Origin: Polaromonas sp.
GTDB lineage: Bacteria; Pseudomonadota; Gammaproteobacteria; Burkholderiales; Burkholderiaceae_C
Direction: 5' to 3'
Length of the DNA: 64,000 bases
Assembly (NCBI GenBank): GCA_030655515.1
Contig: JAURVI010000015.1
Location: forward strand, 1-64,000
Shown here piece after piece: positions 17,225-59,528 of this stretch; the first letter of the stretch is position 1, and every line of letters begins with the position of its first letter. A program made the translations under genes and the position numbers. The notes under the pieces are model-generated. The model searched no databases and was not told the origin of the DNA. It worked only from the letters and a program-made list of their open reading frames with translations.

Positions 17225-17259
17225 AAAAAAATGCCCGGATGACGCAAGGTCAGCCGGGC
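17225..17259 (-). terminator. Rho-independent terminator, minus strand
   Basis: On the minus strand GCCCGG (17259-17254) pairs with CCGGGC (17238-17233), with further pairing of the inner TGAC/GTCA, and is followed by ATTTTTTT (17231-17225). It would stop transcripts arriving from the 17.5-17.8 kb side before hemJ. Confidence 0.7.
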
Positions 17260-17400
17260 CTGGAAGCCTTTTTGTTGTAACACGTCAAGGCACCCGCTCA
17301 GGGAGGAAAAGCGGGATGCAGGCATCAAAAGACGACTGCACACGGCAATTTTAGCGACATTGAGGCGAGATTAGCAACTGGCAACGGCGCTACTCGCAGG

Positions 17401-35847: not shown

Positions 35848-35988
35848 ATCCTGGAAATCGCAGTTGGACACGCCCAATCGGGTGTGTAGCGCGCTCACCC
35901 AAAAGATGAAGTTCGTCGTGGTCAAGAATGTCAGCATTCATGGGCATCTCCAGCGGAAAATGAGCGGTCAACTGCGGTTATCCAGGAT
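35848..35988 (-). mobile_element. MITE-like repeat, copy 1 (short form)
   Basis: About 141 bases bounded by imperfect inverted repeats: ATCCTGGAAATCGCAGTTG at the left and CAACTGCGGTTATCCAGGAT at the right. The body is nearly identical to the copies at 47462-47595 and 49850-50087. In minus-strand sense it begins three bases after the recG stop codon. Its internal ORF (start 35941, MNADILDHDELHLLGERATH) runs on out of the element into non-coding frame because this copy has the short middle section. Confidence 0.8.
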
Positions 35989-35991
35989 AAA

Positions 35992-38130
35992 TCAAGCCTT
36001 CAAAAACTCCGCCTTCCCCCCCAGCCACCGCTGAATATGCCGATGCGCCAAGTCAGCGTGCTGGTCGAGCATCTCGGGGGCCAGCGCCCGCGCCCAGGCC
36101 AGCCAGTCGGCATCAAGTGCCAAATCTGCAAAGCGCAACAAAGGCGCACCCGACTGGCGCGCCCCTAAAAATTCACCCGGTCCGCGAATGTCCAGATCAC
36201 GCCGGGCAATCTCGAAACCGTCCTGCGTTTCGACCATGGCCTTGAGGCGGGCTCTCGCGGTCTCGCCGAGGCGCGGCGCATCGCCGGTCGAATACAGCAG
36301 CACACAGGCCGCTGCCGCCGCGCCGCGCCCGACCCGTCCGCGCAACTGGTGCAACTGCGACAGGCCAAAGCGCTCGGCGTGTTCAATCACCATCAGCGAA
36401 GCATTGGGCACGTCCACCCCCACCTCGATCACCGTGGTGCTGACCAGCACACCGAGCTGGCCGCTGGTGAAGAGGCTCATCACCGCCCTCTTTTCGGCCA
36501 CCGGCATACGCGAATGCAGCAGCCCGACGGGGGTGCCGGGCAGGGCCGCGGTCAAGGCCTCGTGGGTCTGCGTCGCGTTGGTCAAATCCACCGCTTCGCT
36601 CTCTTCAATCAGCGGGCACACCCAGTAGACCTGCCGGCCCTGGTTCAGTTGCCCGCGAATGCGCTCTACCACTTCATCGCGCCGTGCTTCGTTGACCACT
36701 TTGGTCACGATGGGCGTGCGTCCGGGCGGCAGCTCGTCGATGGTGGAGACATCGAGGTCGGCGTAATAACTCATCGCCAGCGTGCGCGGGATCGGCGTGG
36801 CGGTCATCATCAAAAGATGGGGATCCTGCCCGCCCTCGGTCATCTTGCTGCGCAGCGCGAGGCGCTGGGCCACACCGAAGCGATGCTGCTCGTCGATGAT
36901 GGCCAGCGCCAGGTTTTTGAACAGCACCTTGTTCTGGATCACCGCATGGGTGCCGACCACCAGGCCGGCCGCGCCGCTTTCGATCATCGCCAGCGCCTCG
37001 CGCCGCTCTTTGGCCTTCTGGCTGCCGGTCAGCCAGGCGGTCTGGATGCCCAGCGGTTCAAGCCAGCCGATCAGCTTGCGAAAGTGCTGCTCGGCCAGGA
37101 TCTCGGTCGGCGCCATCAGCGCGCACTGCCAGCCGGCGTCCATGCAGCGCGCCGCGGCCAGCGCCGCCACCACGGTTTTACCGGAACCCACGTCGCCCTG
37201 CAGCAAGCGGTGCATGGGGATGTTCTTTTTCAGGTCGGCATCGATCTCGATGCCGACGCGCTGCTGCGCGGCCGTCAGGCGAAACGGCAGGCGTTCCAGC
37301 AACTGCTCGTGCAGCGTGCAGTGCGTGCCCCGCATCGCGGGGCCGGCCAGGGCCGGCGCGCGCATGGCCGCGCGCACGCGGCGCGCCTGCAACTGCGACA
37401 GTTGCTGGGCCAGCAGTTCCTCGGCCTTCAGGCGTTGCCAGGCCGGGTGGCTGCGGTTTTCCAGTGTGGCCAGCGCCGCATCCGGGGTGGGATGATGCAA
37501 AAACTGTAGCGCTTCACGAAGACTCCACAAGGGCTTCGACAGCTTTTTTCTTGAGAAGCCAGTCTCCGGTACGGTTTCCGCGAGGTCTGCCCGGCTCAAG
37601 CCGCTGAGCACGGCCTTGCGCAGATAGGCTTGCGGCAAACCAGCCACCGTCGGATACACCGGCGTCAACGCGGATGGCAAGTCACCACCGGCCGGCCGGA
37701 AGCCGGGATGCACCATTTCGCGGCCAAAACCTCCCGCGAAGGAGCCGCCGCGAATCTCGCCGCGCACGCGCACGCGGGCACCCACGCTCAGGGTTTTCTG
37801 GTGCGAGGGGTAAAAATTGATGAAGCGCAGCACACAGGTGTCGCTGCCGTCGTCCACCGTCACGCGCAATTGCCGACGCGGCCGGAACGTGATTTCGCTG
37901 CGGGTCACCTGCGCCTCGATTTGCACCAGCTCGCCGTCGCGCGCGTCGGCCAGAGCGGTGACGCGGGTTTCATCTTCGTAGCGCAGCGGCAGGTGCAACG
38001 CCAGGTCGATGTCGCGGCGCAGGCCGAGTTTTTCGAGCGCTTGTTGAGCCTGCGATTTGGCGGAGGGGGACCGTGCCTTGCCCGCCGTCTCAAGAGCGGA
38101 TGTGGAAGCCTTTATGACGGGTGGCGGCAT
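35992..38130 (-). CDS. recG: ATP-dependent DNA helicase RecG
   Basis: Branch-migrating helicase that reverses stalled forks. It is 712 residues. An N-terminal wedge/OB domain (about 40-210) precedes helicase motif [16 protein letters not shown] (about 317-331), motif II DEQH (about 417-420), motif [14 protein letters not shown], and motif [11 protein letters not shown] (about 600-608). The ATG at 38130 is only 17 bases from the divergent queA ATG. A MITE-like element starts three bases after its stop. Confidence 0.96.
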
Positions 38131-38147
38131 GGGACAATTGTGCCTTC

Positions 38148-39212
38148 ATGAAGACGCATTTCAGCCTCAGTGATTTTGATTTCACGCTCCCGCCCGAACT
38201 GATTGCCCAACACCCCGCCGCCCAGCGCAGTAGCTCGCGCCTGCTGGATGGCCAGGCCACCGCTGCGGTAGACCGCCGCTTTGCCGACCTGCCCGGCCTG
38301 CTGAGGCCCGGCGATCTGCTGGTGTTTAACGACACCAAAGTGGTCAAGGCGCGGCTGTTTGGCCAAAAGTCCAGCGGCGGCAAGCTGGAGTTGTTGATTG
38401 AACGGGTGCTCTCCCCTGGTGCGGATTCAGGCCACGAAGTCGCGGCCCACATGAAGGTCAGCAAAAAACCTTTGCCCGGTGCGGTGCTACAGATGGACGG
38501 CGGCTTCACCGCCACGCTGCTGGGCCGCTGGCCCAACGAAGACGGGCCGCTGTACCGCTTTGCCCTGAGCAGCGACCCGTATGCGCTGATGGCGCAACAC
38601 GGCCACGTACCGCTGCCGCCGTACATCACGCACGCTGACTCGGCCGACGACGAACAACGCTACCAGACCGTGTTTGCCAAACATCCGGGCGCGGTCGCGG
38701 CACCGACCGCCGCGCTGCATTTTGACGCGGCCGTGCTGGCGCAGCTCGAATCCCGTGGCGTGCAGCGCGCCAGCGTCACGCTGCATGTGGGCGCAGGCAC
38801 CTTTCAGCCGGTCAAGACGGACAACATTGCCGACCACATCATGCATTTCGAGCGCTTTGAAGTGCCGCTCGCGACGCACGAGGCCATTGCCGCCTGCAAG
38901 GCGCGCGGCGGCCGCGTGGTGGCCGTGGGCACCACGACCGTGCGGGCGCTGGAGTCAAGCGCCCGGTTCGGCCCCGCCTGCAATGACACCAATATCTTCA
39001 TCACGCCGGGCTTCGAATTCAGGATGGTGGACCTGCTGCTGACCAACTTTCATCTGCCCAAAAGCACCTTGATGCTGCTGGTCAGCGCCTTTGCCGGCTA
39101 CGAACACATCATGGCGCTGTACCGCCACGCCATCGACCAGCGTTACCGCTTCTTCAGTTATGGCGACGCCATGCTTCTTGATCGACATACAGCAAGTAAA
39201 GCGATAGAATGA
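38148..39212 (+). CDS. queA: S-adenosylmethionine:tRNA ribosyltransferase-isomerase
   Basis: Adds the epoxycyclopentanediol precursor to preQ1 at tRNA position 34 in queuosine synthesis. It is 354 residues from [20 protein letters not shown]; a nine-residue upstream extension is rejected. Family segments include [34 protein letters not shown] and [19 protein letters not shown]. The C-terminus runs on about ten residues past the usual YGDAMLL end. The stop overlaps the antitoxin start by 4 bases. The product of the downstream tgt acts one step earlier. Confidence 0.96.
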
Positions 39213-39438
39213 TCGATGTGAAATCCACCACCAATACCGTCACGCTGTCAAGCAAATACCAGGTTGTCATCCCGGCCTCGGTACGCAAGCACCTGAACCT
39301 CAAACCCGGCGCCAAGCTGACCTGGATTGAGTTTGACGGTGTGGCGCACTTGGTTCCCCTTCAGCCCGTCAGCGCCTACCGCGGGATCGCAAGCGCACTG
39401 AAAGACAGCGATATTCCCAATGAGCCGGATCGCCTTTG

Positions 39439-39439
<1 letters not shown>
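39209..39439 (+). CDS. AbrB/MazE-type antitoxin of a type II toxin-antitoxin pair
   Basis: A 76-residue protein with an N-terminal SpoVT-AbrB swapped-hairpin DNA-binding domain, [20 protein letters not shown] then LKPGAKLTW (about 10-40). The C-terminal tail, about 25 residues, would bind the toxin. ATG overlaps the queA TGA (ATGA), and its own TGA overlaps the toxin ATG (TGATG). By analogy with VapB it should autorepress, but no separate promoter or operator is visible, so it may be driven by the queA transcript. Confidence 0.88.
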
Positions 39440-40964
<1,525 letters not shown>

Positions 40965-40997
40965 TACTGCGCAAACCATCACTGACAAGGAGTTCTC

Positions 40998-42002
40998 ATG
41001 CAATACCGCCGCCTCGGAAACAGCAACCTGAAAGTCTCCACCCTCTGTCTGGGCACCATGATGTTCGGCCAGCAGACGCTATTCGACGAAGCGGCGCGCA
41101 TCGTCGCTTCAGCGCGCGAACACGGGCTCAACTTCATCGACACGGCCGACGTCTACAACGAAGGCCGGGCGGAGACCATGCTGGGCGAGTTGCTGGCGGG
41201 CCAGCGTTCGCACTGGGTGCTGGCCAGCAAACTCGGCAACCGGGTGGGCAAGGACGTGAACCAGGGCCACTACTCGCGCCGCTGGCTGATGCAGCAGACC
41301 GACACCATCCTGTCGCGGCTGGGTACCGACTACCTGGACATTTTGTACCTGCACCGCGACTTCCCCGGTGAAAACCTCGAAGAAGCGGTGCGTGCGCTGG
41401 GCGATCTGATCCGGGCCGGTAAAATCCGCAGCTTCGGGCTGTCCAACTTTCGCGGCTGGCGCATTGCCGAAATCATGCGCCTGTGCGAGAAAACCGGTGT
41501 GCCGCAACCGGCTGTCTGCCAGCCTTATTACAACCTGCTCAACCGCGGCCCCGAGGTCGAAATCTTGCCGGCCTGCGGTCACTACGGGCTGGGTGTGGTG
41601 CCCTACAGCCCGCTGGCGCGCGGTGTGCTGACCGGCAAATACCCGCCCGGCCAGCCGCCGGCCGAGGGCACCCGGGCCGGGCGGGGCGACAAACGCATTC
41701 TGGAGACCGAGTTCCGCGAAGAGTCGCTGTTGATCGCGCAAAAAATCAAGGTCCGTTGTGAGGCCCGAGGCATTGCACCGGGGCACTTTGCCGCAGCCTG
41801 GGTGCTGGCCAATCCGCTGGTCAGCTCGGTGATCGTCGGCCCGCGCCTGCTGTCGCATCTGGAAGATGTCTATGGCGCGACCGAACTGGTGCTGGACAGC
41901 GAAGACGAAACCTTCGTCAACGCGCTGGTCATTCCCGGCCACGCCTCCAGCCACGGCTACAACGACCCGAGCTACCCCTTCTTCGGGCGGCCGGTGGCCT
42001 GA
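40998..42002 (+). CDS. Aldo/keto reductase
   Basis: NADPH-dependent (alpha/beta)8-barrel reductase of 334 residues, close to the YajO/Tas-like group. It starts MQYRRLGNSNLKVSTLCLGT. The catalytic tetrad is visible: Asp in FIDTADVYNEG (about residue 45), Tyr in the same segment, Lys in VLASKLGNRVG (about 78) and His in ILYLHRDFPGE (about 119). AAGGAG lies before the ATG. The substrate is unknown. A 9-bp hairpin (42023-42043) lies between it and the convergent gene. Confidence 0.92.
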   Translation: MQYRRLGNSNLKVSTLCLGTMMFGQQTLFDEAARIVASAREHGLNFIDTADVYNEGRAETMLGELLAGQRSHWVLASKLGNRVGKDVNQGHYSRRWLMQQTDTILSRLGTDYLDILYLHRDFPGENLEEAVRALGDLIRAGKIRSFGLSNFRGWRIAEIMRLCEKTGVPQPAVCQPYYNLLNRGPEVEILPACGHYGLGVVPYSPLARGVLTGKYPPGQPPAEGTRAGRGDKRILETEFREESLLIAQKIKVRCEARGIAPGHFAAAWVLANPLVSSVIVGPRLLSHLEDVYGATELVLDSEDETFVNALVIPGHASSHGYNDPSYPFFGRPVA

Positions 42003-42032
42003 GCGGTTGTTGTGGTCACGCCCGACAGGCTG

Positions 42033-43103: not shown

Positions 43104-43426
43104 TTTTCACCTCAATGCTTTTATTTTGATGGCAGGCGAATTAATGGAATCCGGACAAATGCCCTGAATCATGCCCCTACCACCAACAGCATGTCGTTAT
43201 ACACAAGTCCGCGCTGCACGGGAAGAGGACCGCCAGGAATGAAACCCATCTCCCAGCAGTCATTCACGTCAACAGGCAGCAACTGAATGTCGGCAATTGA
43301 CCGTCCTCCAATTCACTGGCTGAACTGGAATGACGGCTCCCGCCGCATTGCAGACCCCAAAGCAGGAAGCATTGCCCGCCCGGTTTGGCTCGGCACGCCG
43401 CCTGCCGCTTCAATGAAGCGCCTTCA
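43104..43426. other. 323-base intergenic stretch with an ORF remnant
   Basis: No credible gene. On the minus strand an open frame from 43312 to a stop at 43169 reads protein-like text such as VDVNDCWEMGFIPGG and LVYNDMLLVVGA, but it has no start codon and is cut by a stop upstream. It may be the end of a lost gene or a repeat. Nothing else is seen. Confidence 0.4.
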
Positions 43427-45349
43427 TCACCCCTGCGCCATCAGGGCTGCCACCCGCCCGCGCAACACTTCCGGCTGCACCTGGCCCGCCGGCATGGCCG
43501 CGCCCACGTTCAGCCCGACCCGGCTGAACCAGCCGCGCCGGAAGGGCCGCACCATGGCGCCGCCCTGCTCGATGCGGCTGAAGTAGGAACCCCACAGATG
43601 GGTCAGCGCCATCGGGATCACCGGCACGCTCTGGCGCTCCAGAATCTTCATGACGCCGCCCTTGAACTCCTGCAGCGTCCCGTCGCGGGTGATGCCGCCC
43701 TCGGGGAAGATGGCGAGCAGGTCGCCTTCTTTCAGCACGTTGGCTGCCGCATCGAAAGCGGCCTCATAGGCCGCCGGGTCTTCAGCGCGCGGGGCGATGG
43801 GAATGGCCCGGGCCAACCTGAACAACCAGCCCAGCAGCGGCACCCTGAAGATGCGGTGGTCCATGAGGAAGCGGATCGGGCGCGGGCTGGCGGCGATCAG
43901 CAGCACGGCGTCCACAAAGCTCACGTGGTTGCACACCAGCACGGCCGCCCCCTGGGACGGAATATGTTCGTCCCCGGTGACCTTGAAGCGGTACACGAAG
44001 TGGGAGGCCGCCCAGGCCACAAAGCGCAGCAGGTATTCCGGCACCAGCATGAAGATGTAAAACGCCACCACCGCATTGGCCAGGCCCACGAACAGGAAAA
44101 TCTGCGGAATGCTGAAATCAGCCTGGAGCAGCGCGCCGGCCAGGATGGAACTGACAATCATGAACAGCGCGTTGAGGATGTTGTTGGCCGCGATGATGCG
44201 GGCCCGGTGCGTGGGCTGGCTGCGCAGCTGGATCAGCGCGTACATGGGCACGCTGTACAGGCCGGCAAACAGGCTGAGCAGCATCAGGTCGGCCATCACG
44301 CGCCAATGCGCGGGCTGCGCGAGAAAGGCCGCCAGGCCCATCACCGCGGAAGCCGGCAACCCCCGCGACGAAAAATACAGGTCGATGGCAAACACGCTCA
44401 TGCCGATGGCGCCCAGCGGCACCAGGCCGATTTCCACATGGCGGCGGCTCAGCACCTCGCACAAGAGCGAGCCGGTGCCGATGCCGACCGAAAACACCAC
44501 CAGCAGGAGGGAGGCGACCTGCTCGTCCCCATGCAGCACCTCCTTGGCAAAGCTGGGGAACTGGCTCAGGAACACGGCGCCGAAAAACCACATCCAACTG
44601 ATGCCCAGCAGCGAGCGGAACACGACGATGTTGTTGTGCGCCAGTTTCAGGTTGCGCCAGGTCTCGGACACCGGGTTCCAGTTGATTGTCAAACCCGGGT
44701 CGGTGGCTGGCACTGCGGGAATGCGCCCCGCCATGAAACGCCCCACCACGGCCAGCGCGACGCAGGCCACGGCGACGTTTTGATGACCGACCTCGGGGAT
44801 GGCCACCGCCAGGCCGCCCACCACATTGCCGAGCAGGATGGCGACAAAGGTGCCCATCTCGACCATGCCGTTGCCGCCGGTCAGCTCGCGCTCGCTCAGT
44901 ACCTGCGGCAGGTAGGCAAACTTCACCGGGCCGAACAGGGTGGAGTGCAGGCCCATGAGAAAGGTGCAGGCCAGCAGCGCCGGCACGTTGCCCATGATGA
45001 AGCCCCAGGCCGCGATCAGCATGATCACGATTTCCAGGTTCTTCACCAAGCGGATCATCCGCGTCTTTTCATACTTGTCGGTGAGCTGCCCGCTGGTGGC
45101 GCTGAACAGCAAAAAGGGCAGGATGAACAGCGCGCCGATCACCAGGCCGGCCATGCCTGGGGGCAGCCAGCTCACGCTGAGCTGGTAGGTCACCATCACG
45201 GTGAAGGCGAACTTGAACAGGTTGTCGTTCGCGGCACCGGAGAACTGTGTCCAAAAAAACGGTGCGAAGCGGCGCTGCCTGAGAAGCGCAAACTGGTTCG
45301 GGTGCTCGTGGCCTGCGGATGGCAGCACCGGTGCGTGGTCAACACTCAT
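43427..45349 (-). CDS. LplT-like transporter fused to PlsC-like acyltransferase
   Basis: A 640-residue inner-membrane fusion. Residues about 1-410 are an MFS-type lysophospholipid transporter (FSGAANDNLFKFAFTVMV, LTDKYEKTRMI, FGPVKFAYLPQVLSERE). Residues about 430-640 are a 1-acyl-glycerol-3-phosphate acyltransferase domain with NHVSFVD (the HX4D motif) and IFPEGGIT. It resembles E. coli LplT-Aas without the acyl-ACP synthetase part, so it likely flips lysophospholipid and re-acylates it. It lies 10 bases after the FIST gene. Confidence 0.9.
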   Translation of the reverse strand: MSVDHAPVLPSAGHEHPNQFALLRQRRFAPFFWTQFSGAANDNLFKFAFTVMVTYQLSVSWLPPGMAGLVIGALFILPFLLFSATSGQLTDKYEKTRMIRLVKNLEIVIMLIAAWGFIMGNVPALLACTFLMGLHSTLFGPVKFAYLPQVLSERELTGGNGMVEMGTFVAILLGNVVGGLAVAIPEVGHQNVAVACVALAVVGRFMAGRIPAVPATDPGLTINWNPVSETWRNLKLAHNNIVVFRSLLGISWMWFFGAVFLSQFPSFAKEVLHGDEQVASLLLVVFSVGIGTGSLLCEVLSRRHVEIGLVPLGAIGMSVFAIDLYFSSRGLPASAVMGLAAFLAQPAHWRVMADLMLLSLFAGLYSVPMYALIQLRSQPTHRARIIAANNILNALFMIVSSILAGALLQADFSIPQIFLFVGLANAVVAFYIFMLVPEYLLRFVAWAASHFVYRFKVTGDEHIPSQGAAVLVCNHVSFVDAVLLIAASPRPIRFLMDHRIFRVPLLGWLFRLARAIPIAPRAEDPAAYEAAFDAAANVLKEGDLLAIFPEGGITRDGTLQEFKGGVMKILERQSVPVIPMALTHLWGSYFSRIEQGGAMVRPFRRGWFSRVGLNVGAAMPAGQVQPEVLRGRVAALMAQG

Positions 45350-45359
45350 GACGCCCGGA

Positions 45360-46649: not shown

Positions 46650-46671
46650 GGCGCGACGCCTTGCCGCAGCG

Positions 46672-47244: not shown

Positions 47245-47372
47245 GGTTGCTCCAGAAATAGGGATAAGCATCAGCAGTCAGGTGCGGACAGCTTACCCCA
47301 GTGTGGCGATGCCTGTTTGGCTCGCCTTTGTAGCCGGCTAGCTGCAATGCTGTTCATTGAAGCGCTACAACC

Positions 47373-47441
47373 CCGTTCGCCCTGAGCCTGTCGAAGGGTC
47401 GTCACAGTGCAAACAGGCTTCGACAAGCTCAGCCCGAACGG
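47373..47441. repeat. Palindromic intergenic repeat
   Basis: CCGTTCGCCCTGAGCCTG plus TCGAAG (47373-47396) is mirrored by the near-perfect inverse CTTCGACAAGCTCAGCCC plus GAACGG (47418-47441), with a 21-base spacer. This palindrome is a common REP-like repeat in high-GC proteobacteria. It lies between phaM and MITE-like copy 2, in phaM's upstream region. Confidence 0.75.
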
Positions 47442-47461
47442 TTAAGCGAACAGTATTGCGG

Positions 47462-47595
47462 CTAGAAACCGCAGTTGGACACGCCCCATCGGGTGTGTCG
47501 CGCGCTCACCCAAAAGGTGAAGTTCGTCGTGGGCAAGAATGTCAGCATTCATGGGCATCTCCAGCGGAAAATGAGCGATCAACTGCGGTTTCTAG
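47462..47595 (-). mobile_element. MITE-like repeat, copy 2 (short form)
   Basis: 134 bases bounded by a perfect 16-bp inverted repeat, CTAGAAACCGCAGTTG and CAACTGCGGTTTCTAG. In minus-strand sense it begins two bases after the stop of the thioredoxin-fold gene. It carries GGAGATGCCC then ATG (47552) and the ORF MNADILAHDELHLLGERATH. Here the frame leaves the element and stops shortly after. The middle section is short, like copy 1. Confidence 0.88.
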
Positions 47596-47597
47596 GT

Positions 47598-49413: not shown

Positions 49414-49437
49414 CGAAAACCTCGGCCTGTTGATGGT

Positions 49438-49848
49438 TTACTGAACGGGTTCGGTGATGAAGCCGATTTTGCGCAAACCGGCCTGCTGCGCCGCCGCCAT
49501 GACCTGGGCCACGCGCTCGTAGCGCACCGCCTTGTCAGCGCGGATGTGCAGCTCGGGCTGCGGTTGCCGGGCGGCTGCCGCCTGGAGCTGCGGTGCCAGA
49601 TCGGCCGCAGCCAGCGGCGCTTCATTCCAGTAGTACCTGCCCGCCGCATCCACGCTCAGACGGATGGTTTGCGGCTGGCTGTCCTGCGGCTGGCTGGTGG
49701 CGCGCGGCAGGTCGATGTTGACCGCGTGTTTCATCACCGGCACGGTGATGATGAAGATGATGAGCAGCACCAGCATGACGTCAACCAGCGGCGTCATGTT
49801 GATCTCGTTCATCACCTCGTCGCTATCGTCCTGGGTTCCGAAAGCCAT
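49438..49848 (-). CDS. exbD: Biopolymer transport protein ExbD
   Basis: Proton-channel component of the TonB energising complex. It is 136 residues. The single membrane helix has the essential aspartate in MTPLVDVMLVLLIIFII (about 18-34), followed by a periplasmic domain ending KIGFITEPVQ. The AGGA before its ATG lies within the terminal repeat of MITE-like copy 3, and that copy's internal ORF stops 4 bases before the ATG. Confidence 0.94.
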   Translation of the reverse strand: MAFGTQDDSDEVMNEINMTPLVDVMLVLLIIFIITVPVMKHAVNIDLPRATSQPQDSQPQTIRLSVDAAGRYYWNEAPLAAADLAPQLQAAAARQPQPELHIRADKAVRYERVAQVMAAAQQAGLRKIGFITEPVQ

Positions 49849-49849
49849 G

Positions 49850-50087
49850 ATCCTAGAAACCGCAGTTGGACAGGCCCGAGTGGGCCGTCATGGGGTGGGC
49901 TGGGAAGGCGCGACGACGCGGCTGGCTACTGCCAGCAAGGAGGAGCAACGCGCCTGGCGCGCCCCAGGGCGGCTCAATCGGGCCTGTAGCGCGCTCACCC
50001 AAAAGGTGAAGTTCGTCGTGGTCAAGAATGTCAGCATTCATGGGTATCTCCAGCGGAAAATGAGCGGTCAACTGCGGTTTCTAGGAT
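49850..50087 (-). mobile_element. MITE-like repeat, copy 3 (long form)
   Basis: 238 bases bounded by a perfect 19-bp inverted repeat, ATCCTAGAAACCGCAGTTG and CAACTGCGGTTTCTAGGAT. It fills almost the whole gap between exbB and exbD, beginning 5 bases after the exbB stop. Compared with copies 1 and 2 it has about 100 more bases in the middle, GC-rich. Its ends and right half are over 90% the same as theirs by eye. Confidence 0.9.
49853..50041 (-). CDS. Micro-ORF inside MITE-like copy 3
   Basis: A 62-residue frame, starting MNADILDHDELHLLGERATG and ending MTAHSGLSNCGF, wholly inside the repeat. GGAG lies 6 bases before its ATG. Its last codons and the TAG stop come from the terminal inverted repeat (TCCAACTGCGGTTTCTAG). 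The stop is 4 bases before the exbD ATG, so translation could be coupled. The start peptide is shared with copies 1 and 2, and the ending SNCGF with copy 4. No known family is recognised; expression is unproven. Confidence 0.45.
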   Translation of the reverse strand: MNADILDHDELHLLGERATGPIEPPWGAPGALLLLAGSSQPRRRAFPAHPMTAHSGLSNCGF

Positions 50088-50092
50088 GATGT

Positions 50093-50821
50093 TCAGGCCT
50101 TGCGCAGTGGCAGAACTTTGCTGCCGTTGAACGCGCTGGTCGATCCGACCCGTGAGCCGGTCACAAAGAGCGCGTGCAGGTCATGGGCAAAGCGGTTGAG
50201 CTTGGTCAGCACGCCCTTGTTGCCACGCACCAGCGCGTTGTAGCCGAGCACGGCGGGAATCGCCACCGCCAGGCCGAGCGCCGTCATGATCAAGGCCTCG
50301 CCAATCGGCCCGGCCACCTTGTCGATGGTGGACTGACCGGAGACTCCGATCGCCAGCAGCGCGTGGTAAATGCCCCAGACGGTGCCGAACAGGCCCACAA
50401 AAGGGGCGGTGGAGCCGACCGATGCCAATACCGCCAGACCCGACTGCAAGCGGGCCGTGGCATCGTCAATGGCGCTGCGCAGGCAGCGCGTCACCCAGTC
50501 GCTGCGGTCCAGCGAATCGTTCAGGGGGGGCTGGCTGCTCCGTGCTTGAAAGTGCGCATCCGCCTCCCGGCCCTGGAGGGCGAGTTGGCGAAACGGGTTG
50601 CCGGCGTCGCCGCCCAGTTGGCTCAGGCCGGCGGCAAAATCAGGGGCCAGCCAGAAGCTTTCCGTGGCCTGGGCCTCTTTTGATATTTGGCGCAGGCCCA
50701 AAGCCTTGATCAGGATGACGATCCACGACGCCAGGGACATGAGCAACAACAACAGCGCCACGGCGCGGGTCACCAGGTCGCCCTGGGTCCAGAGGGTCAA
50801 AAGACCGGATTGAGCATTCAT
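50093..50821 (-). CDS. exbB: Biopolymer transport protein ExbB
   Basis: MotA/TolQ/ExbB proton-channel protein of 242 residues. The N-terminal helix (about 16-40) is followed by a cytoplasmic loop. The paired helices contain LAVLASVGSTAPFVGLFGTV (about 128-147) and EALIMTALGLAVAIPAVLGY (about 175-194), the family signature. It is 6 bases downstream of tonB. It is separated from exbD by MITE-like copy 3. Confidence 0.95.
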   Translation of the reverse strand: MNAQSGLLTLWTQGDLVTRAVALLLLLMSLASWIVILIKALGLRQISKEAQATESFWLAPDFAAGLSQLGGDAGNPFRQLALQGREADAHFQARSSQPPLNDSLDRSDWVTRCLRSAIDDATARLQSGLAVLASVGSTAPFVGLFGTVWGIYHALLAIGVSGQSTIDKVAGPIGEALIMTALGLAVAIPAVLGYNALVRGNKGVLTKLNRFAHDLHALFVTGSRVGSTSAFNGSKVLPLRKA

Positions 50822-50827
50822 GAAAAT

Positions 50828-51505: not shown

Positions 51506-51518
51506 GCGCAGACTCCTG

Positions 51519-53837: not shown

Positions 53838-53915
53838 GAGAAATCTCCAAAAATATCAAGCCAAGGTGCCGCTCGCCATTTTTGAATGGGCGAGAGGCGC
53901 TATGAATTCAATAGT

Positions 53916-54272
53916 TCAGGAGAAAGAGGGAGGTCCGCGCGCTGGCGGCGGCGTAGCGGTGAGAGAAGCAATACGGGCTGCCGGGATGCTCCGCAGCACG
54001 TAGGCCAGGGGGGACACGGGTTGAGCCGTCTGCCGGGTGACCGGCGGTGGCGCGCCGAGGGATGCACACAGCGGGCAATCCAGCGTGTGACCGGACTGCG
54101 CCCGGGTGCCGTCATCGGTCTTGACCAGCACCTTCAGTGCGCCCGAGCCCGAGCAGATCAGCTCGATGGCCTGTGGCTTGACGATAGGTGAGGCAATCGC
54201 CACCCCGATGGACAACGCAAACCACACCAGCACGAAGCGGGCTATGGTGCGGGCGTTGCGCAAAGTCTGCAT
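53916..54272 (-). CDS. DUF2946-family protein
   Basis: A 118-residue small exported protein from MQTLRNARTIARFVLVWFAL; a longer frame upstream is rejected. It has one N-terminal hydrophobic segment and cysteines in AIELICSGSGALKV and TLDCPLCASLG (about residues 30 and 63). This DUF2946 pattern is often found beside copper or TonB receptor genes. It probably binds metal; this is inference from the CPLC motif and the neighbours. Confidence 0.8.
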   Translation of the reverse strand: MQTLRNARTIARFVLVWFALSIGVAIASPIVKPQAIELICSGSGALKVLVKTDDGTRAQSGHTLDCPLCASLGAPPPVTRQTAQPVSPLAYVLRSIPAARIASLTATPPPARGPPSFS

Positions 54273-54304
54273 AAGCGAAATTATGACCGATGGCGCCGGA
54301 TGAC

Positions 54305-54427
54305 CTAAAACTTCGGCGCCCGCTTCTCGCACACATCCGACTCGCACATCAACAGGTAGTACTTGGCCTTGCCCATGCTGCACAGCAGTGGCCAGACGAT
54401 CCGGCAGCGGATTGACGAAAGCCCCAT
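54305..54427 (-). CDS. Candidate small Cys-rich protein, coupled to the polyferredoxin gene
   Basis: A 40-residue frame, MGLSSIRCRIVWPLLC followed by SMGKAKYYLLMCESDVCEKR. Its ATG overlaps the TAA of the upstream gene as TAATG, the same coupling seen at secE-nusG. It has four cysteines, the last two as CESDVC, and a hydrophobic centre. It fills the 154-base gap before DUF2946. No family is recognised; chance openness in GC-rich DNA cannot be excluded. Confidence 0.4.
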   Translation of the reverse strand: MGLSSIRCRIVWPLLCSMGKAKYYLLMCESDVCEKRAPKF

Positions 54428-55827
54428 TAGACAAAAAATGTAGCGGCCCATATCAAGTCGCCCAAGGCGATCGGCAGCATATACGCGGCGAATGCGCGCA
54501 GGCGGCGCATGGAAGGATTGCCGGCGAGAAGTTTCCAGCCCAGCCAGGCTGAAAACCCGCTTCCCAGCACCAGCAGGCTCACCCGCGCGGCGGGCACCCA
54601 TTCCAGCGAAATTCTTTCTGCCTTGAGATGCGCCAGGGTCAACATGGACAGGCCCAGAAAAATCCCCATGCCGGCCAGCGGCACCAAGGCCAGCGACAAG
54701 CGCTGCCAGGATAGCGCTGGATTATTCGCCAGCCGTGCCGCCAGCCAGACGCAGGCCAGGATGGCCAAACCCAGCACAGCCCCGCCACCGAGAAGGTAGA
54801 GGAGGATGCAAACGCCATCGAGCCAGGTGAACAGGTCGTTGGCTGCCGGGTAGTGGGTCAGCAGCCACCATGGCGCATTGTCTTGCAACAGCAGCAAGGC
54901 ATCGTGCTCGATCAGCCACCCGGCCAGGGCCGTCTTCATTTGCACGAACCAGGGGCTGGAAGACCACTGGAACGCTGCCGTGGCGATCCCGAGAACGCCA
55001 AAAATGAGCGTCAGCGCTTCTTCCGTTCTGACGTCCTTGTTGCGCGTGTTCAGTATGTCGTGCGCGGGCGTGCGCCCGGCAAGCTGCACGGCGCCGCGGT
55101 AATCGCTGCAGCGACCGCAGGCATGGCAGGCCGAAGCGCTTTTCATGTGGCGAATATCGATCAGCGGCGCACAGTTCACCCGCGGCGGACGCTCTGTGCC
55201 TTGCACCCAGATTTTTTCATCCACGCGAAAATGCACCGGGGCAATTTTCGCCAGCAGCGCAAACACACTGTTGGCCGGGCACAGATAACGGCACCAGACG
55301 CGTTTGCCCCGGCCATAGACAAACCCGACCGCGACGGCGGCCACGCTCGATCCCCCCAGCACCAGCAGCGCGGCTTGCGGATACTCGTAGACACTGACCA
55401 ACTGGCCATACACCGTGGTGCAGACAAAGGCCGTGAATGGCCAGCCACTCCAACGCATCCAGCGCGGAATGGGACGCCCCAGGCCATGGTGACTGGCGAA
55501 CTCCGTCAACGCGCCTTCCGGACAGAAAACGCCGCACCAGACGCGTCCGAACAACATCATGCTGACCATCACGAACGGCCACCAGATGCCCCAGAAGAGG
55601 AACTGCGCAAACAGGCGCAGATTGTTGTAGATGTGGGCATCTTCAGGCGGCAGCGGCATGAGCGCCGGAACGATCAGCAGCAACAGGTAAAAGAAGACAA
55701 CGATCCACTGGATCGCCAGAATCGCGCGGCGGTGGCGTTGCATGGCGGCGCCGATTCGGGCCAGCCAGCCGGCGCCACGGCCAGGGTTCCCGCCGGCGCG
55801 TTCTGCATTGGGAAACATGTCATGCAT
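54427..55827 (-). CDS. Membrane polyferredoxin (NosR/FtrD-like)
   Basis: A 466-residue inner-membrane 4Fe-4S protein with about ten helices. Cysteine motifs are GRVWCGVFCPEGALTEF (about 94-110), KRVWCRYLCPANSVF (about 176-190) and SACHACGRCSDYRG (about 237-250), like the NosR C-terminal domain and FtrD of FtrABCD iron uptake. It likely passes electrons through the membrane for iron or copper handling with the P19 protein upstream. It lies 59 bases after the outer-membrane protein gene. Confidence 0.85.
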   Translation of the reverse strand: MHDMFPNAERAGGNPGRGAGWLARIGAAMQRHRRAILAIQWIVVFFYLLLLIVPALMPLPPEDAHIYNNLRLFAQFLFWGIWWPFVMVSMMLFGRVWCGVFCPEGALTEFASHHGLGRPIPRWMRWSGWPFTAFVCTTVYGQLVSVYEYPQAALLVLGGSSVAAVAVGFVYGRGKRVWCRYLCPANSVFALLAKIAPVHFRVDEKIWVQGTERPPRVNCAPLIDIRHMKSASACHACGRCSDYRGAVQLAGRTPAHDILNTRNKDVRTEEALTLIFGVLGIATAAFQWSSSPWFVQMKTALAGWLIEHDALLLLQDNAPWWLLTHYPAANDLFTWLDGVCILLYLLGGGAVLGLAILACVWLAARLANNPALSWQRLSLALVPLAGMGIFLGLSMLTLAHLKAERISLEWVPAARVSLLVLGSGFSAWLGWKLLAGNPSMRRLRAFAAYMLPIALGDLIWAATFFV

Positions 55828-55886
55828 GGCGGCTTCGTCTTCGCTGGCAACGGCGGGCCTGGTTCAGGGCTGTCATCATGTTCCCG

Positions 55887-57407
55887 TCAGAAAGTCAGTT
55901 GCGCGCGCAGGCCGAACACCTTGATCGCCGCCGCGCCGGGCGCGCCGCCGGGCTTGCCGATGTACTGGAAGTCGGGCGACAGCTCGAACTGCCTGTTGAT
56001 GCGGTAGCGGTAATAAATTTCGGCGACCTGCTCGCCGCTCCCGGCGGTGTAGCCGAAGTCCGGAATGCCGTTGCCGTTGGCATCCACCCTGGCCGAGCCA
56101 CGCGAGAAATCGTTGTTGGTGTGCAGCCAGCCGAACGCCACGCCGATCGCGTCACCGCCCCGATTCCAGCCGTACCCTGCGATTTCGCCGCCGACCGTCA
56201 CGGCCCGGTCGAAGCGGGCGCCGGCACCGGAGATGTGCTGGCCGTAACGGCCAAAGACAGTCACGGCGTCGCCCAGGCGCTGGTCCGCGGAGAACCCCCA
56301 GCCGCTGCGTTGGGAGACGCTGCCGTCGTAGCCCGGCGCCTGGCCGTTGCGCCAGTAATAGGCACGGTAGTTGCCGACGCCGTCAAACAGGCGCAACTGG
56401 GTTTCGGCCTGGGCAATGACCAGCGGCGAACTGAAAAAGCGCTCGTAGTTGGCACCGCGCCCGGCGCCGAAGACACCGAGGGACAGACGCCAGGCTTCGC
56501 TCTTGGTGCGGTAGTTCGAGTAGGAGACGCGCAAGCCCGGCGTGAAGCCGTTGGCGTCCACGCCGATGTCGCCGCCGGCATCGAGCAGGGCGTTATGCAC
56601 GAAAACGGTGTTGAGAAACTGCTTCGTTTCATCGTTGGCCGCCGCATTCTGGTCGAAGAAAACGAAGGGGTCCATCTTGCCGAAGTTGATCTCCAGCGTT
56701 TCCTTCGAATGCGGCTTGAAGCCGCCGAAGGGCAGTGGAATGCTTGCCTGGTACCAGGCCTGGCCGAGCACCGCCACCGAGTCATCCGGCTGGGCGGAGA
56801 GCACGCGGAACGCACTGGCATTGGGCTTGGAGTAAGTCGCCAGGCCATTGAGGCCGGTGCCCTGGCCCATGCGGAACTGGGCAAAGAGGCGACTCGCGGT
56901 ATCGCCGACCTTGGGCAGTGGCAGCGTCACGAAGGCATCGGCCCGGTAGTTGAACTGGCTGTTGTCGGTCCCCGCAGCCGAGCCCGTGGCGACGCCGCCC
57001 GGACGTTGCGCCACGGTGGTCAGGCTGACGCCGGCGGTGACGCCATCGAGCGCCTCGATCACACGCGCCGCCTTGAGCGAGTTCAGCGACTGGTACTCGA
57101 CCGCCTTCAGGCGCGAGGTCAGCTCCGGCTCATACTGGCTGATGTCCTCGGAGTTCAGACCTTGGGTGATCTTCGCCTGGGCTTCTTCAAGGCTCTGCAC
57201 GCGCCTGTCGAGCGGCGCGGCGGCAGGTTGGGCTTGAATCTGTTTTTCAAGCTCCCCGTTGCGTTTTTCCAGCAGATCGAGGCGGGCGTTCATTTTTTCC
57301 AGCAGGCGAAGCAACTCTTTCTGCGACGGTGCGGCCCAGGCTGGCGCGGTCAACAGTGCGGCACCAGCCAGCGCCAGCGGCCGCAGACGATGGTTCAGGC
57401 GCGTCAT
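55887..57407 (-). CDS. Outer-membrane beta-barrel protein (porin-like)
   Basis: A 506-residue exported protein. The signal peptide ends near LTAPAWAA. A short coiled coil (about 28-60, LLRLLEKMNARLDLLEKRNG) suggests a trimer. The rest alternates as a barrel and ends in the C-terminal aromatic LRAQLTF. Segments such as LFAQFRMGQGTGLNG and GWLHTNNDFSRG resemble porins of the OprB type, but the family is uncertain. Two bases separate it from the P19 gene, indicating one operon. Confidence 0.8.
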   Translation of the reverse strand: MTRLNHRLRPLALAGAALLTAPAWAAPSQKELLRLLEKMNARLDLLEKRNGELEKQIQAQPAAAPLDRRVQSLEEAQAKITQGLNSEDISQYEPELTSRLKAVEYQSLNSLKAARVIEALDGVTAGVSLTTVAQRPGGVATGSAAGTDNSQFNYRADAFVTLPLPKVGDTASRLFAQFRMGQGTGLNGLATYSKPNASAFRVLSAQPDDSVAVLGQAWYQASIPLPFGGFKPHSKETLEINFGKMDPFVFFDQNAAANDETKQFLNTVFVHNALLDAGGDIGVDANGFTPGLRVSYSNYRTKSEAWRLSLGVFGAGRGANYERFFSSPLVIAQAETQLRLFDGVGNYRAYYWRNGQAPGYDGSVSQRSGWGFSADQRLGDAVTVFGRYGQHISGAGARFDRAVTVGGEIAGYGWNRGGDAIGVAFGWLHTNNDFSRGSARVDANGNGIPDFGYTAGSGEQVAEIYYRYRINRQFELSPDFQYIGKPGGAPGAAAIKVFGLRAQLTF

Positions 57408-57409
57408 GT

Positions 57410-57967
57410 TCAATAGCCGCCTTTTTTGCCGATGCCCGCATAGACGAAGTCGTATTCGACCTCGAAGGGCTTGAACCACGGCCGCACGCCGGTGAGGCGG
57501 TCGGTATGGCGGCCGAAATGGGCGTGTGCGTTCCCGGACGGCGGCAGGATGGTGAGCTTGACGTGGTACTTGCCCGGGCCGAAGAGCTTGACGTTGTCGC
57601 CGTAGTGCGGGCCGTCGTTGGCCACCATCGGCATGAAGTCGCCGCTGACTTTCTGGTTGGTGCCGGTCTTGCTGATTTCGAACTTGACGACCAGGTACGG
57701 CACCCAGGCGCCCTCCTCGAAGCCGTTCGGGTTGTTGGCCAGGGCCTTGATGTCGGCCTCGATGTGGATGTCCGACTCCTCGGCTTTCTTCATCATGCCG
57801 TCCGGCTCCATGGTCACCGGCTGCAGATAGACGGCGGCGATTTCCATGCCGGCGCGCTGGTGCGGCGTGCCGATCGGATATTCGACAGCGTAGGCATTCA
57901 GGGCCGACGCCGCAGCCAGCATCAGAAAGAGTCGTTTGGCCGGGGCCGCCACCGTTGCTGAGAACAT
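57410..57967 (-). CDS. P19-family periplasmic iron-uptake protein
   Basis: A 185-residue exported protein of the P19/Tp34/FetP family that binds copper and iron(II)/(III) in the periplasm. The signal peptide ends near ASALNAYA. Metal-site residues are expected in PIGTPHQRAGMEIAAVYLQP (about 31-50), MVANDGPHYGDNVKLFGPG and NAHAHFGRHTD. ATG at 57967 is chosen; a TTG three bases upstream is equally close to AAGGAG. Partners FTR1 permease and cupredoxin, common in FtrABC systems, are absent here. Confidence 0.9.
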   Translation of the reverse strand: MFSATVAAPAKRLFLMLAAASALNAYAVEYPIGTPHQRAGMEIAAVYLQPVTMEPDGMMKKAEESDIHIEADIKALANNPNGFEEGAWVPYLVVKFEISKTGTNQKVSGDFMPMVANDGPHYGDNVKLFGPGKYHVKLTILPPSGNAHAHFGRHTDRLTGVRPWFKPFEVEYDFVYAGIGKKGGY

Positions 57968-58027
57968 CAAGGCTCCTTGAAAAGTGCAGGGGATTGTTTA
58001 AATGATGTTTTTTTACACCATAATGAA

Positions 58028-58042
58028 TGATAACAGTTCTCA
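58028..58042. promoter_or_regulatory. Fur-box-like site upstream of the P19 operon
   Basis: TGATAACAGTTCTCA matches the 15-base Fur 7-1-7 consensus at 11 positions and lies in an AT-rich segment 60 bases upstream of the P19 ATG. It would place this operon under iron control. Beyond it, 58043-58255 holds no gene. Confidence 0.55.
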
Positions 58043-58255
58043 TTTGCATTCAATTAAATAATGAGAAAAAAGACCTGATTCCGATGGCGCCCCTCGGGTT
58101 GACGATCAACGACGGGGCTGGCGCATACGGCCAGTGCATGGACGGCACTGGCATCCCGGCCACCCGAGCGATCCGCCGCTCGTGGTCCTGGCCCGCCAAT
58201 ATTTCCTCCGGTTCAACAAGATGCAGGACGGGACGTGCAGCCCCGCCCCGCCGGA

Positions 58256-59266
58256 TCATTGGGCCAGCGGCGCAATTTTCTGTTCGATGGCACCGAACAT
58301 GCTCTGCCCATCCTGGCCCTTCATTTCAATCCGGATGGTGTCGCCGTACTTCATGAAACCGGTCGAGGGCTTGCCGTCCTGGATGGTTTCGATCGCGCGC
58401 TTTTCGGCGATGCAACTGTAACCCTTGGGCCAGTCGGTCTTGCCCTTGACTTCAACCCCCTTGTTGCTGACCGGACCCGAGCCCACGATGGAGCCGGCGC
58501 GCACATGGCGGGTCTTGCAGATGTGGGCGATCAACTGGCCGAAGTGAAACGTCATCTCCGGCCCGGTCTCGCACAGGCCGACCTTGCGGCCATTCCAGGT
58601 GCTTTGCAGAGTCAGGTCGAGGCGGCCCGCCTGCCACGCATCGCCCAACTCATCAAGTGTCACGGCCACCGGGCTGAAGGCGGTGGCCGGTTTGCTCTGG
58701 AAAAATCCAAAACCCTCGGCCAGTTCGTCGGGAATCAGCTTGCGCAGGCTCATATCGTTGGCCAGCATCACCAGCCGTATGCCTTCGAGCGCCTGCTCGG
58801 GCGTGCTGGTCATGGCCACGTCGCCGGTAATCACCGCGACTTCGGCTTCGAAGTCGATGCCGTAGTCCTCGCTCGGGCACACCACCTCATCACAGGGGCC
58901 GAGGAAGCCGTCGCTGCCGCCCTGGTACATCAGCGGGTCCTTGTAAAAGCTGTCGGGCATCTCGGACTCGCGCGCCTTGCGCATCAGCGCCACATGGTTG
59001 ATGTAGGCCGTGCCGGCGGCCCACTGGCAGGCGCGCGGCAGCGGCGCCATGCATTGCACCGGCTCGAACGGGAAGGCGTGGCGCGTCTTGCCAGCGTTCA
59101 GCGTGTCGTACAAGTCCTGCAATTGCGGCGACAGGAAGTTCCAGTCGTCCAGCACCTGCTGCAGTTTGTTGGCGATGCCCGTCGCATAATGGGCCGTCGC
59201 CAGGTCGCGCGAGACCACCAGCAACTGGCCGTCACGCGAGCCGTCTTTGTACGTAGCGAGTTTCAT
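58256..59266 (-). CDS. Fumarylacetoacetate hydrolase-family protein
   Basis: A 336-residue enzyme of the FAH superfamily, probably a fumarylacetoacetase of tyrosine degradation or a related hydrolase. It starts MKLATYKDGSRDGQLLVVSR; a longer frame is rejected. Metal-binding residues are expected in SEDYGIDFEAEVAVITGDV (about 140-158) and the catalytic region around RLVMLANDMSLR. The C-terminal part carries VGSGPVSNKG and GDTIRIEM. No other tyrosine-degradation gene is nearby. Confidence 0.9.
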   Translation of the reverse strand: MKLATYKDGSRDGQLLVVSRDLATAHYATGIANKLQQVLDDWNFLSPQLQDLYDTLNAGKTRHAFPFEPVQCMAPLPRACQWAAGTAYINHVALMRKARESEMPDSFYKDPLMYQGGSDGFLGPCDEVVCPSEDYGIDFEAEVAVITGDVAMTSTPEQALEGIRLVMLANDMSLRKLIPDELAEGFGFFQSKPATAFSPVAVTLDELGDAWQAGRLDLTLQSTWNGRKVGLCETGPEMTFHFGQLIAHICKTRHVRAGSIVGSGPVSNKGVEVKGKTDWPKGYSCIAEKRAIETIQDGKPSTGFMKYGDTIRIEMKGQDGQSMFGAIEQKIAPLAQ

Positions 59267-59368
59267 TGGTTTTTCTCTTGATTTTTGGGCAGCTCGGTCA
59301 GGCTGATGACACACGGTGCCGGCTGGCCGCGGCACTGCGTTAGCGTTACGATGAGAGGAATCAGTTTA

Positions 59369-59525
59369 CCGAAACCGCAGTTGACGGCTTCTTTGCCGCC
59401 GGCAGAACCTCATGAACACACACCTACTCACTTACGTACGAGGTCACCTTTTTGGGGACAGCGCTACGCACCCGATTGCCAGTCCCATGACGGTCCACCC
59501 GGGCGCGTCCAACTGCGGCTTCTAT
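59369..59525 (+). mobile_element. MITE-like repeat, copy 4 (diverged, opposite orientation)
   Basis: About 157 bases bounded by GAAACCGCAGTTG (59371-59383) and CAACTGCGGCTTCTA (59510-59524), the same ends as copies 1-3. The interior aligns to the others when they are reversed, for example CACCTTTTTGGGG and GCGCTACGCACCCGATTG, and shares CCCATGACGG with copy 3 only. It is more diverged and is the only copy in plus orientation. It lies between the FAH gene and the DUF3108 gene. Confidence 0.78.
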
Positions 59526-59528
59526 TGA
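59412..59528 (+). CDS. Micro-ORF inside MITE-like copy 4
   Basis: A 38-residue frame starting MNTHLLTYVRGHLFGDSATH and ending GASNCGFY, aligned with the micro-ORF of copy 3 at both ends (MN at the start, SNCGF at the end). Its TGA overlaps the proposed TTG start of the following DUF3108 gene as TTGA, so the two could be coupled. The upstream Shine-Dalgarno is weak. Expression is unproven. Confidence 0.35.
   Translation: MNTHLLTYVRGHLFGDSATHPIASPMTVHPGASNCGFY

What the first reader, a model, noticed from the sequence alone, without database searches (positions are those of the whole stretch)
35848..59528. Small repeat family with 16-19 bp inverted ends, each copy carrying a short ORF
Four copies (35848-35988, 47462-47595, 49850-50087, 59369-59525) share the ends CTAGAAACCGCAGTTG and CAACTGCGGTTTCTAG. 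All contain an ORF that starts MN in the same place. In copies 3 and 4 it ends SNCGF or SNCGFY, and those last codons are the terminal repeat itself. Copies 1 and 2 look like internal deletions of a longer form. A MITE-like element with a built-in Shine-Dalgarno and cistron is not a type I can name.
Basis: partly seen in the sequence, partly recalled or inferred. Interest (0 to 1): 0.75.

Follow-up and report, generated by a model that had tools for sequence, protein, structure and literature searches.

The report
Small mobile element with folded RNA
A short 'parasite of a parasite' DNA element, about 234 letters long, has spread through many Burkholderiales bacteria, apparently using ends shared with a larger jumping gene; what evolution preserves in it is a folded shape on one strand, not the tiny protein first suspected on the other.

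Summary
The repeat family is real. The window holds one full copy and three shortened ones; the arm model finds relatives in 106 of 399 Burkholderiales genomes. The intact unit is 234 bp: 17-bp inverted ends (CCTRGAAACNGCAGTTG), 5-bp target duplications (WTNAW), nearly fixed length. A Polaromonas plasmid holds a 1,630-bp insertion sequence with the same kind of ends and duplication and an IS1380-related transposase. So this is a MITE, probably moved in trans by such an element; its body does not come from that IS.

The body is no ordinary peptide gene: substitutions fall evenly over codon positions, and most copies of a second size class are open in another frame. What is conserved is a fold: 34 of 39 long-arm pairs show compensatory changes, and pairs decay to G-U twice as often as to A-C (227 v 113) on the strand opposite the ORF. 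That points to selection on RNA (or single-stranded DNA) of that strand. The ORF still has a conserved ATG and few stops and runs with tandem neighbour genes 53:19, so it may be read as a translated spacer.

A new MITE family with an unusual structured body; the fold's function is unknown.

The parts
35850..35986 (+). Copy 1, shortened (137 bp); + is the strand with the conserved fold; long arm reduced to its base
   Evidence: flanks ATAAT / ATAAA
47461..47596 (+). Copy 2, shortened (136 bp), nearly the same arm deletion as copy 1
49852..50085 (+). Copy 3, full-length element (234 bp); + strand carries the conserved fold (predicted -135.5 kcal/mol, z -8.95; minus strand -111.3, z -7.10)
59369..59524 (-). 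Copy 4, degenerate and shortened; fold strand is minus, ORF strand plus
49852..49868 (+). Terminal inverted repeat, left end of copy 3 (CCTAGAAACCGCAGTTG)
50069..50085 (-). Terminal inverted repeat, right end of copy 3
49847..49851 (.). Target duplication ATGAT, left
50086..50090 (.). Target duplication ATGAT, right
49868..49988 (+). Long hairpin arm (121 nt), matched by covariance model R1 over its whole length (this copy is also in the model's alignment)
49853..50041 (-). Micro-ORF of copy 3 (62 aa), ends with the TAG of the terminal repeat, 4 nt before the exbD-like ATG
50093..50821 (-). ExbB-like gene upstream of copy 3 on the ORF strand
   Evidence: PF01618
49438..49848 (-). ExbD-like gene downstream of copy 3 on the ORF strand; the closest relatives have the two genes 2 and 5 nt apart, without the element
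   Evidence: (PF02472)

Best explanation
The repeats are copies of a non-autonomous transposable element (a MITE) of Burkholderiales. SHOWN: a 234-bp unit, 17-bp inverted ends starting CC, 5-bp duplications of a palindromic WTNAW target, an empty site in close relatives, and an insertion sequence with the same kind of ends and target whose transposase is IS1380-related. INFERRED: that transposase, or a relative of it, recognises CCT...CAGTT and moves the element in trans by ordinary DDE transposition; insertions survive mainly between genes, often exactly at stop codons, because the target core TNA is a stop codon on one strand and is rare inside GC-rich genes. SHOWN: the body is not a deletion product of that IS; it is predicted to fold into a three-way junction (the terminal repeats form the closing helix; a 121-nt long arm; a side arm with a small hairpin), its length is nearly fixed, and the pairs covary. 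The excess of G-U over A-C puts the selected fold on the strand opposite the micro-ORF. INFERRED: the fold acts as RNA when that strand is transcribed, more likely than as single-stranded DNA; what it does is not known, and the orientation bias suggests that it is tolerated less well in sense inside operons. The micro-ORF encodes no conserved peptide; at most it is a translated spacer.
For: Ends and duplications: 38 of 82 full copies have a perfect 5-bp duplication; shuffled pairing gives 4.8 on average and at most 12 in 1000 shuffles. Of 89 full copies in the named-genome loci (86 with distinct flanks) 80 (77) are exactly 234 bp. Spread: 29 of 101 genomes by DNA, own included; 106 of 399 order genomes and 55 of 159 genera with the arm model; 116+116 end matches in one Ramlibacter genome, control 0. 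Parent-type IS: Polaromonas sp. P1-6 plasmid, 1,630 bp, ends CCTATTTTCGGCAGTTAGC / CCTAGAAACGGCAGTTAGC, TTAAA/TTAAA, transposase PF13701 86.5 bits and NF033539 155.5 bits; both ends of the neighbouring element copy match the right end of that IS, 16/16 and 15/16; a second IS of 1,648 bp in G476. Fold: 34 of 39 pairs with changes on both sides, 276 cells v 82.5 shuffled, covariation 0.572 v 0.217, slid versions 0.043-0.185. Strand: on the 60 pairs common to the folds of both strands, WC->GU 227 v WC->AC 113 events, p 6e-10; in the terminal helix 56 v 29. Not a peptide. Empty site: none of 29 relatives' exbD loci has the element upstream, the own locus has.
Against: No transposition was observed. 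No matching transposase was found in the window's own genome, nor end pairs 1-3 kb apart in the lists for two complete genomes rich in copies, G042 and G080. Matches to the P1-6 transposase are rare: 10 of 45 genomes that I listed as having the element and 3 of 35 listed as without, nearly all fragments. It scores below NCBI's IS1380 cut-off (155.5 v 180), and the left end of its IS differs from its right end at 4 positions. The second IS has flanks ATCAT / TTCAT, not a perfect duplication. Copies 1 and 2 share nearly the same arm deletion at two sites, so the arm tip may not be needed for movement. No transcript data exist here, so RNA function is inferred; G-T wobble in single-stranded DNA could also give the asymmetry. 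Stops are depleted in the ORF frame and its ATG is conserved, which a pure RNA account does not predict.
Confidence: 0.78

Rival explanations
1. Translational bridge: the micro-ORF strand is the one that matters in operons. An insert between tightly spaced genes cuts translational coupling; the element's own start codon lets ribosomes cross it and stop at its very end, next to the downstream start. Selection is for openness and stop position, not for amino acids.
For: Tandem neighbours run with the ORF strand 53 times and against it 19 times among 144 insertions (p 7.6e-5). The adjoining gene's stop codon lies in the duplication in 30 cases with the ORF strand following that gene and 13 with the fold strand following it (p 0.014). 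The ORF stop lies at -10..+5 of the element end in 95 of 144 copies. 4 stops in 86 copies in this frame v 33.1 shuffled; the ATG columns show 12, 9 and 10 events v 13-38 in the other columns from 25 to 75; SD-like motif in 16 of 69 v 2.75. Copy 3 sits between exbB and exbD, which are 2 and 5 nt apart in the two closest relatives.
Against: The bias is as strong in copies whose ORF runs past the end (13:3) as in those that stop at the boundary (40:15), so coupling is not needed to explain it; and it is absent in G080 (3:3). On a tree the stop depletion is mild (13-17 observed v 23-26 expected) and the complementary frame on the other strand is depleted too (38 v 68). Only 5 coupled junctions in ORF orientation v 2 in the other were counted.
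Confidence: 0.25
2. The fold is selected as single-stranded DNA (for instance during transposition or replication), not as RNA.
For: The terminal helix covaries together with the body, and copies of one genome carry different end variants that mostly match within a copy. No evidence of transcription was available.
Against: G-U is the commonest state at several pairs of the arm, e.g. 30 of 42 and 22 of 42 copies, and is twice as common an outcome as A-C, which fits RNA better. DDE transposition with short duplications normally uses double-stranded ends (recalled).
Confidence: 0.2
3. No selection on the fold: imperfect palindromes are made perfect by template switching or slippage, which mimics covariation, in an otherwise ordinary MITE.
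For: Shortened copies in the own genome have lost the tip or all of the arm, in several cases on both sides of the hairpin, as slippage does.
Against: Such correction makes Watson-Crick pairs and gives no reason for G-U over A-C on one strand; stretches of the arm that the model leaves unpaired are also conserved and the length is nearly fixed across genera.
Confidence: 0.12
4. The micro-ORF encodes a functional conserved peptide.
For: Conserved start, few stops, some SD-like motifs.
Against: Even codon positions over the whole ORF and pN/pS 0.89 within the range of the control frames; no Pfam match worth the name for 3 micro-ORFs (best E 0.25); 15 of 20 copies of the other size class have their longest frame elsewhere.
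Confidence: 0.05

Closest known systems
MITEs of bacterial insertion sequences (class)
   Same: Short, inverted ends, target duplications, no transposase, ends like those of an autonomous IS
   Different: Body is not a deleted IS; nearly fixed length and strong strand-specific covariation across many genera
IS1380 family (e.g. ISEcp1)
   Same: Ends beginning CC, 5-bp duplication; the transposase of the P1-6 IS matches PF13701 and NF033539
   Different: Transposase below the NCBIfam cut-off; IS1380 copies seen in G036, G459 and G242 have other ends (CCTGAATCCGTGA, CCCGGATATTTCAC)
ERIC and Correia elements
   Same: Hairpin repeats mostly between genes; PMC10969869 (passages only) reports RNase III and RNase E effects on transcripts holding them and ORFs inside some
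   Different: Other hosts; no sequence relation was tested
MITE of Polaromonas sp. JS666 (Mattes et al. 2008)
   Same: A genus in which this element also occurs; cited in PMC10969869 (passage)
   Different: Paper not held; whether it is this family could not be checked
Rickettsia palindromic elements
   Same: Repeats compatible with translation (named in a PMC10969869 passage; the rest recalled)
   Different: Those lie inside genes (recalled); of 152 insertions here 4 lay inside a called ORF

Membership tests
MITE | Short element with terminal inverted repeats | tested here: met
   234 bp, 17-bp ends
MITE | Target-site duplication | tested here: met
   5 bp; 38 of 82 perfect v 4.8 shuffled
MITE | No transposase of its own | tested here: met
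   micro-ORF about 62 aa, no Pfam family for the 3 tested
MITE | Autonomous IS with the same ends and target | tested here: met
   P1-6 IS (right end 16/16 and 15/16, left end 4 differences from its right end; TTAAA/TTAAA) and, less exactly, G476 IS
MITE | Mobility shown or implied by an empty site | tested here: met
   exbD upstream region without the element in 29 of 29 relatives' loci; the two closest (L481, L482) look like orthologues, others may be paralogues
IS1380 family (partner) | Transposase over the family's curated cut-off | tested here: not met
   155.5 bits v 180 for NF033539; PF13701 86.5 v 34.7 is met. Called IS1380-related, not a member
IS1380 family (partner) | Ends starting CC and 4-5-bp duplication (recalled) | tested here: met
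   CCT ends, TTAAA/TTAAA
Structured RNA | Covarying helices beyond column shuffles and slid controls | tested here: met
Structured RNA | Transcribed | not testable with these tools
   no expression data
Known Rfam family | Match at gathering score | tested here: not met
   none over any copy in the window; 6 loci at E<=5 gave one match, a miRNA family far below its threshold
Protein-coding gene | Excess of third-position changes, pN/pS well under control frames | tested here: not met
IS110 with bridge RNA (considered) | No target duplication, no terminal inverted repeats of this kind (recalled) | tested here: not met
   5-bp duplications and 17-bp ends

The most novel reading that the evidence does not exclude
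A selfish element adapted on both strands: one strand is a mobile structured RNA maintained across some fifty genera, which does a job for the element or blunts its harm to the host, while the other strand keeps an open frame with its own start and, in most copies, a stop at the very end, so that insertion between co-translated genes is repaired at the level of translation.
Probability: 0.2. Interest if true: 0.82.

Novelty: new variant of a known kind. Interest (0 to 1): 0.6.

Why it matters
MITE bodies are usually expected to drift once the ends are kept (recalled). Here the body keeps a nearly fixed length and a strand-specific fold across an order and is not derived from the candidate helper IS. 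That makes a clean question: what does an RNA have to do to be carried as MITE cargo? The system is tractable, with a candidate helper transposase, a genome with over 100 end matches in each direction (Ramlibacter sp. H39-3-26) and an insertion inside an exbB-exbD pair. It also shows that an open, start-bearing small frame in a repeat need not be a gene.

Tried and rejected
Rejected: a conserved micro-peptide. Rejected: the IS1380 copies of G036, G459 and G242 as helpers, since their ends differ. Considered and set aside: IS200/IS605, IS110, Tn3 and Tn7 types, because 5-bp duplications with CC ends do not fit them (recalled). Led nowhere: viral contigs and phages, 0 matches; papers on MITEs with Comamonadaceae or translational coupling. 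That I know of no description in print rests on searches (listings only; of PMC10969869 also passages) and on Rfam; the JS666 paper was not readable, so a prior description cannot be excluded.

Weak points of my own tests. Column shuffles ignore relatedness; the tree test is milder. In one search the even spread holds for the whole ORF and its 5' part, but in the stretch 104-152 position 1 changes less (0.226/0.403/0.371); the shifted frames there are uneven too. Genes were called by a simple GC-frame script, not a gene finder; of 152 insertions with enough flank, 4 inside ORFs and 4 at edges were dropped, leaving 144; one search is an earlier run on part of the same copies, not independent. 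The tandem bias by group is 46:14 in named and other genomes, 4:1 in G459, 3:3 in G080, 0:1 in the own genome. Searches used only copies of 228-238 bp, only the own genus and G080. The 399-genome count uses roughly calibrated E-values up to 1e-3, so its weak rows may include false matches. The list stopped at its limit.
Full report
WHAT IS THERE. The four repeats are real and far above chance. In the window's own genome the core of the end occurs 17 times (control 3) and the full body gives 24 matching pieces, including full-length copies at C3, C27, C49 and C51. Relatives: 29 of 101 genomes by DNA similarity, the own genome included.

ANATOMY. I collected 82 copies with both ends from own-genus and other-family genomes and 89 from the loci of named genomes (133 matches, 89 with both ends, 86 of them with distinct flanks). 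Length is almost fixed: 80 of 89 (77 of 86 distinct) are 234 bp; 20 copies from other families measure 235-237 bp. Ends are CCTRGAAACNGCAGTTG with variants (CCTAGATTCCTCAGTTG, CCTAAAAACCYCAGTTG); the outer CC and the inner AGTTG change least and the middle varies, mostly matched at both ends of one copy. Flanks are 5-bp direct repeats, WTNAW: 38 of 82 perfect against a mean of 4.8 and a maximum of 12 in 1000 shuffled pairings. Because WTNAW is itself palindromic, the inverted repeat seems to run on into the flanks.

EMPTY SITE. Copy 3 lies between ExbB- and ExbD-like genes. Of 30 exbD loci fetched, only the window's own has the element. In the two closest relatives (ExbD 90% and 85% identical, L481 and L482) the exbB stop is 2 and 5 nt before the exbD ATG; in L482 the junction reads TGAGCATCATG. 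For the 29 relatives the script placed the upstream stop 2-20 nt away in 19, 28-107 nt away in 5, and could not place it in 5 (L481 among these, read by eye). The own genome has a second ExbD at 76% identity, so some of the more distant loci may be paralogues.

HELPER. End pairs 1-3 kb apart were not found in the lists for G042 and G080 (the G459 list was cut short and says little). IS1380 copies in G036, G459 and G242 had other ends. Reading the annotated plasmid hit in Polaromonas sp. P1-6 showed, 357 bases from a full copy of the element, a 1,630-bp insertion sequence with ends CCTATTTTCGGCAGTTAGC and CCTAGAAACGGCAGTTAGC, flanked by TTAAA on both sides. Its 510-aa transposase matches PF13701 (86.5 bits, cut-off 34.7) and NF033539 transpos_IS1380 (155.5, cut-off 180). 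Both ends of the element copy match the right end of that IS, 16/16 and 15/16; the left end of the IS differs from its right end at 4 positions. Beyond the ends blastn found nothing below E 0.5; nhmmer gave one weak match of about 50 bases (E 0.009, 5.2 bits) around the transposase start. A 50%-identical transposase in G476 sits in a 1,648-bp IS with the same kind of ends and flanks ATCAT / TTCAT. Of 80 genomes searched, 13 had a match, G476 the only one nearly full-length without stops; by my lists 10 of 45 genomes with the element and 3 of 35 without. The own genome had none.

THE ORF. Over 82 copies the ORF frame is open in 72, the terminal repeat left out of account. Yet substitutions in own-genus copies are even over codon positions (0.321/0.341/0.338) and pN/pS is 0.891, between 1.013 and 0.758 for the two shifted frames; G080 copies give 0.959. 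In 15 of 20 copies of 235-237 bp the longest frame is a different one. Signals that remain: 4 stops in 86 dereplicated copies against 33.1 in column shuffles, but only 13-17 stop-creating events against 23-26 expected on a tree, and the complementary frame is depleted too; ATG is the most conserved triplet of its region, and SD-like motifs occur in 16 of 69. I read this as weak to moderate evidence that the frame is translated, and good evidence that the peptide sequence does not matter.

THE FOLD. RNAalifold on 33 copies gave 39 pairs, 21 with changes on both sides. Folding the opposite strand gave a better and longer structure (-176 v -139 on 82 copies). Since a fold chosen on one strand favours that strand's G-U pairs, I used only the 60 pairs common to the folds of both strands: among 44 dereplicated copies G-U 154, A-C 58; as events on a tree of 162 distinct copies WC to G-U 227, WC to A-C 113 (p 6e-10), 56 v 29 in the terminal helix and 171 v 84 elsewhere, with 146 double WC-to-WC changes (first of four runs that agree closely). 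For the 121-nt arm, 42 copies: 93.9% of cells paired, 34 of 39 pairs with compensatory change, covariation 0.572 against 0.217 shuffled and at most 0.185 when slid. Copy 3 folds well below shuffles (z -8.95 on the fold strand, -7.10 on the ORF strand). Rfam has no such family at threshold.

SPREAD. The arm model finds 106 of 399 order genomes, 55 of 159 genera. Named hits include Ramlibacter, Variovorax, Acidovorax, Roseateles, Pelomonas, Paucibacter, Rhodoferax, Polaromonas, Giesbergeria, Inhella, Rubrivivax and Azonexus; a MAG labelled Desulfobulbus also has it, perhaps a binning error (list stopped at its limit). One set of exact end variants occurs in 37 of 399 genomes of the family, 0 in the reversed control. 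None in viral contigs or phages, 2 plasmids.

CONTEXT. Of 144 insertions, tandem neighbours run with the ORF strand in 53 and with the fold strand in 19; 36 are convergent, 36 divergent; G080 alone shows no bias (3:3). In 30 of 89 cases with a co-directional upstream gene its stop codon lies inside the left duplication; for fold-strand orientation the like number is 13. The palindromic target gives no reason for an orientation bias, so selection after insertion is likely: either the fold is harmful in a sense transcript or the open frame helps. The bias is present whether or not the ORF stops at the boundary (40:15 and 13:3), which speaks for the first.

DELETIONS. In six shortened copies of the own genome that I aligned, part or all of the long arm is lost, in several on both sides of the hairpin; one (L041) is altered in the side arm too. 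That is expected of slippage at hairpins. Copies 1 and 2 share nearly the same deletion at two sites, so a shortened form may still move.

VERDICT. A new MITE family of an IS1380-related helper, with a conserved, strand-specific fold as its body. The kind is known; the body is the unusual part.

Noticed in passing
window 44534-44655 (-) and 17225-17316 (-): Rfam matches above threshold to Burkholderia sRNAs Bcj11 (RF02835) and anti-hemB (RF02837).
   Followed up: no
window about 47378-47446: Next to copy 2 lies another palindromic repeat (CCCTGAGCCTGTCGAAGGG ... CTTCGACAAGCTCAG), which looks like a separate dispersed repeat.
   Followed up: no
L412 3038-3213; L522 903-1078: A second short element of 176 bp with the same kind of ends but a different body, two copies in the Ramlibacter genome.
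   Followed up: partly
L222, L223, L227, L085: Longer copies in G042 (about 318 bp in L222 and L223) in which part of the long arm seems duplicated.
   Followed up: no
G042 C1 777286, 1272437, 3258049 (L218-L220); C1 2952037 (L221): Three identical CCTACTACCAGCAGTTG sites and one near-identical one in a complete genome, possibly ends of yet another element.
   Followed up: no
L510 1561-1740 (+): The plasmid annotation calls a 'hypothetical protein' on the fold strand of the element, i.e. opposite to the micro-ORF of this finding.
   Followed up: no
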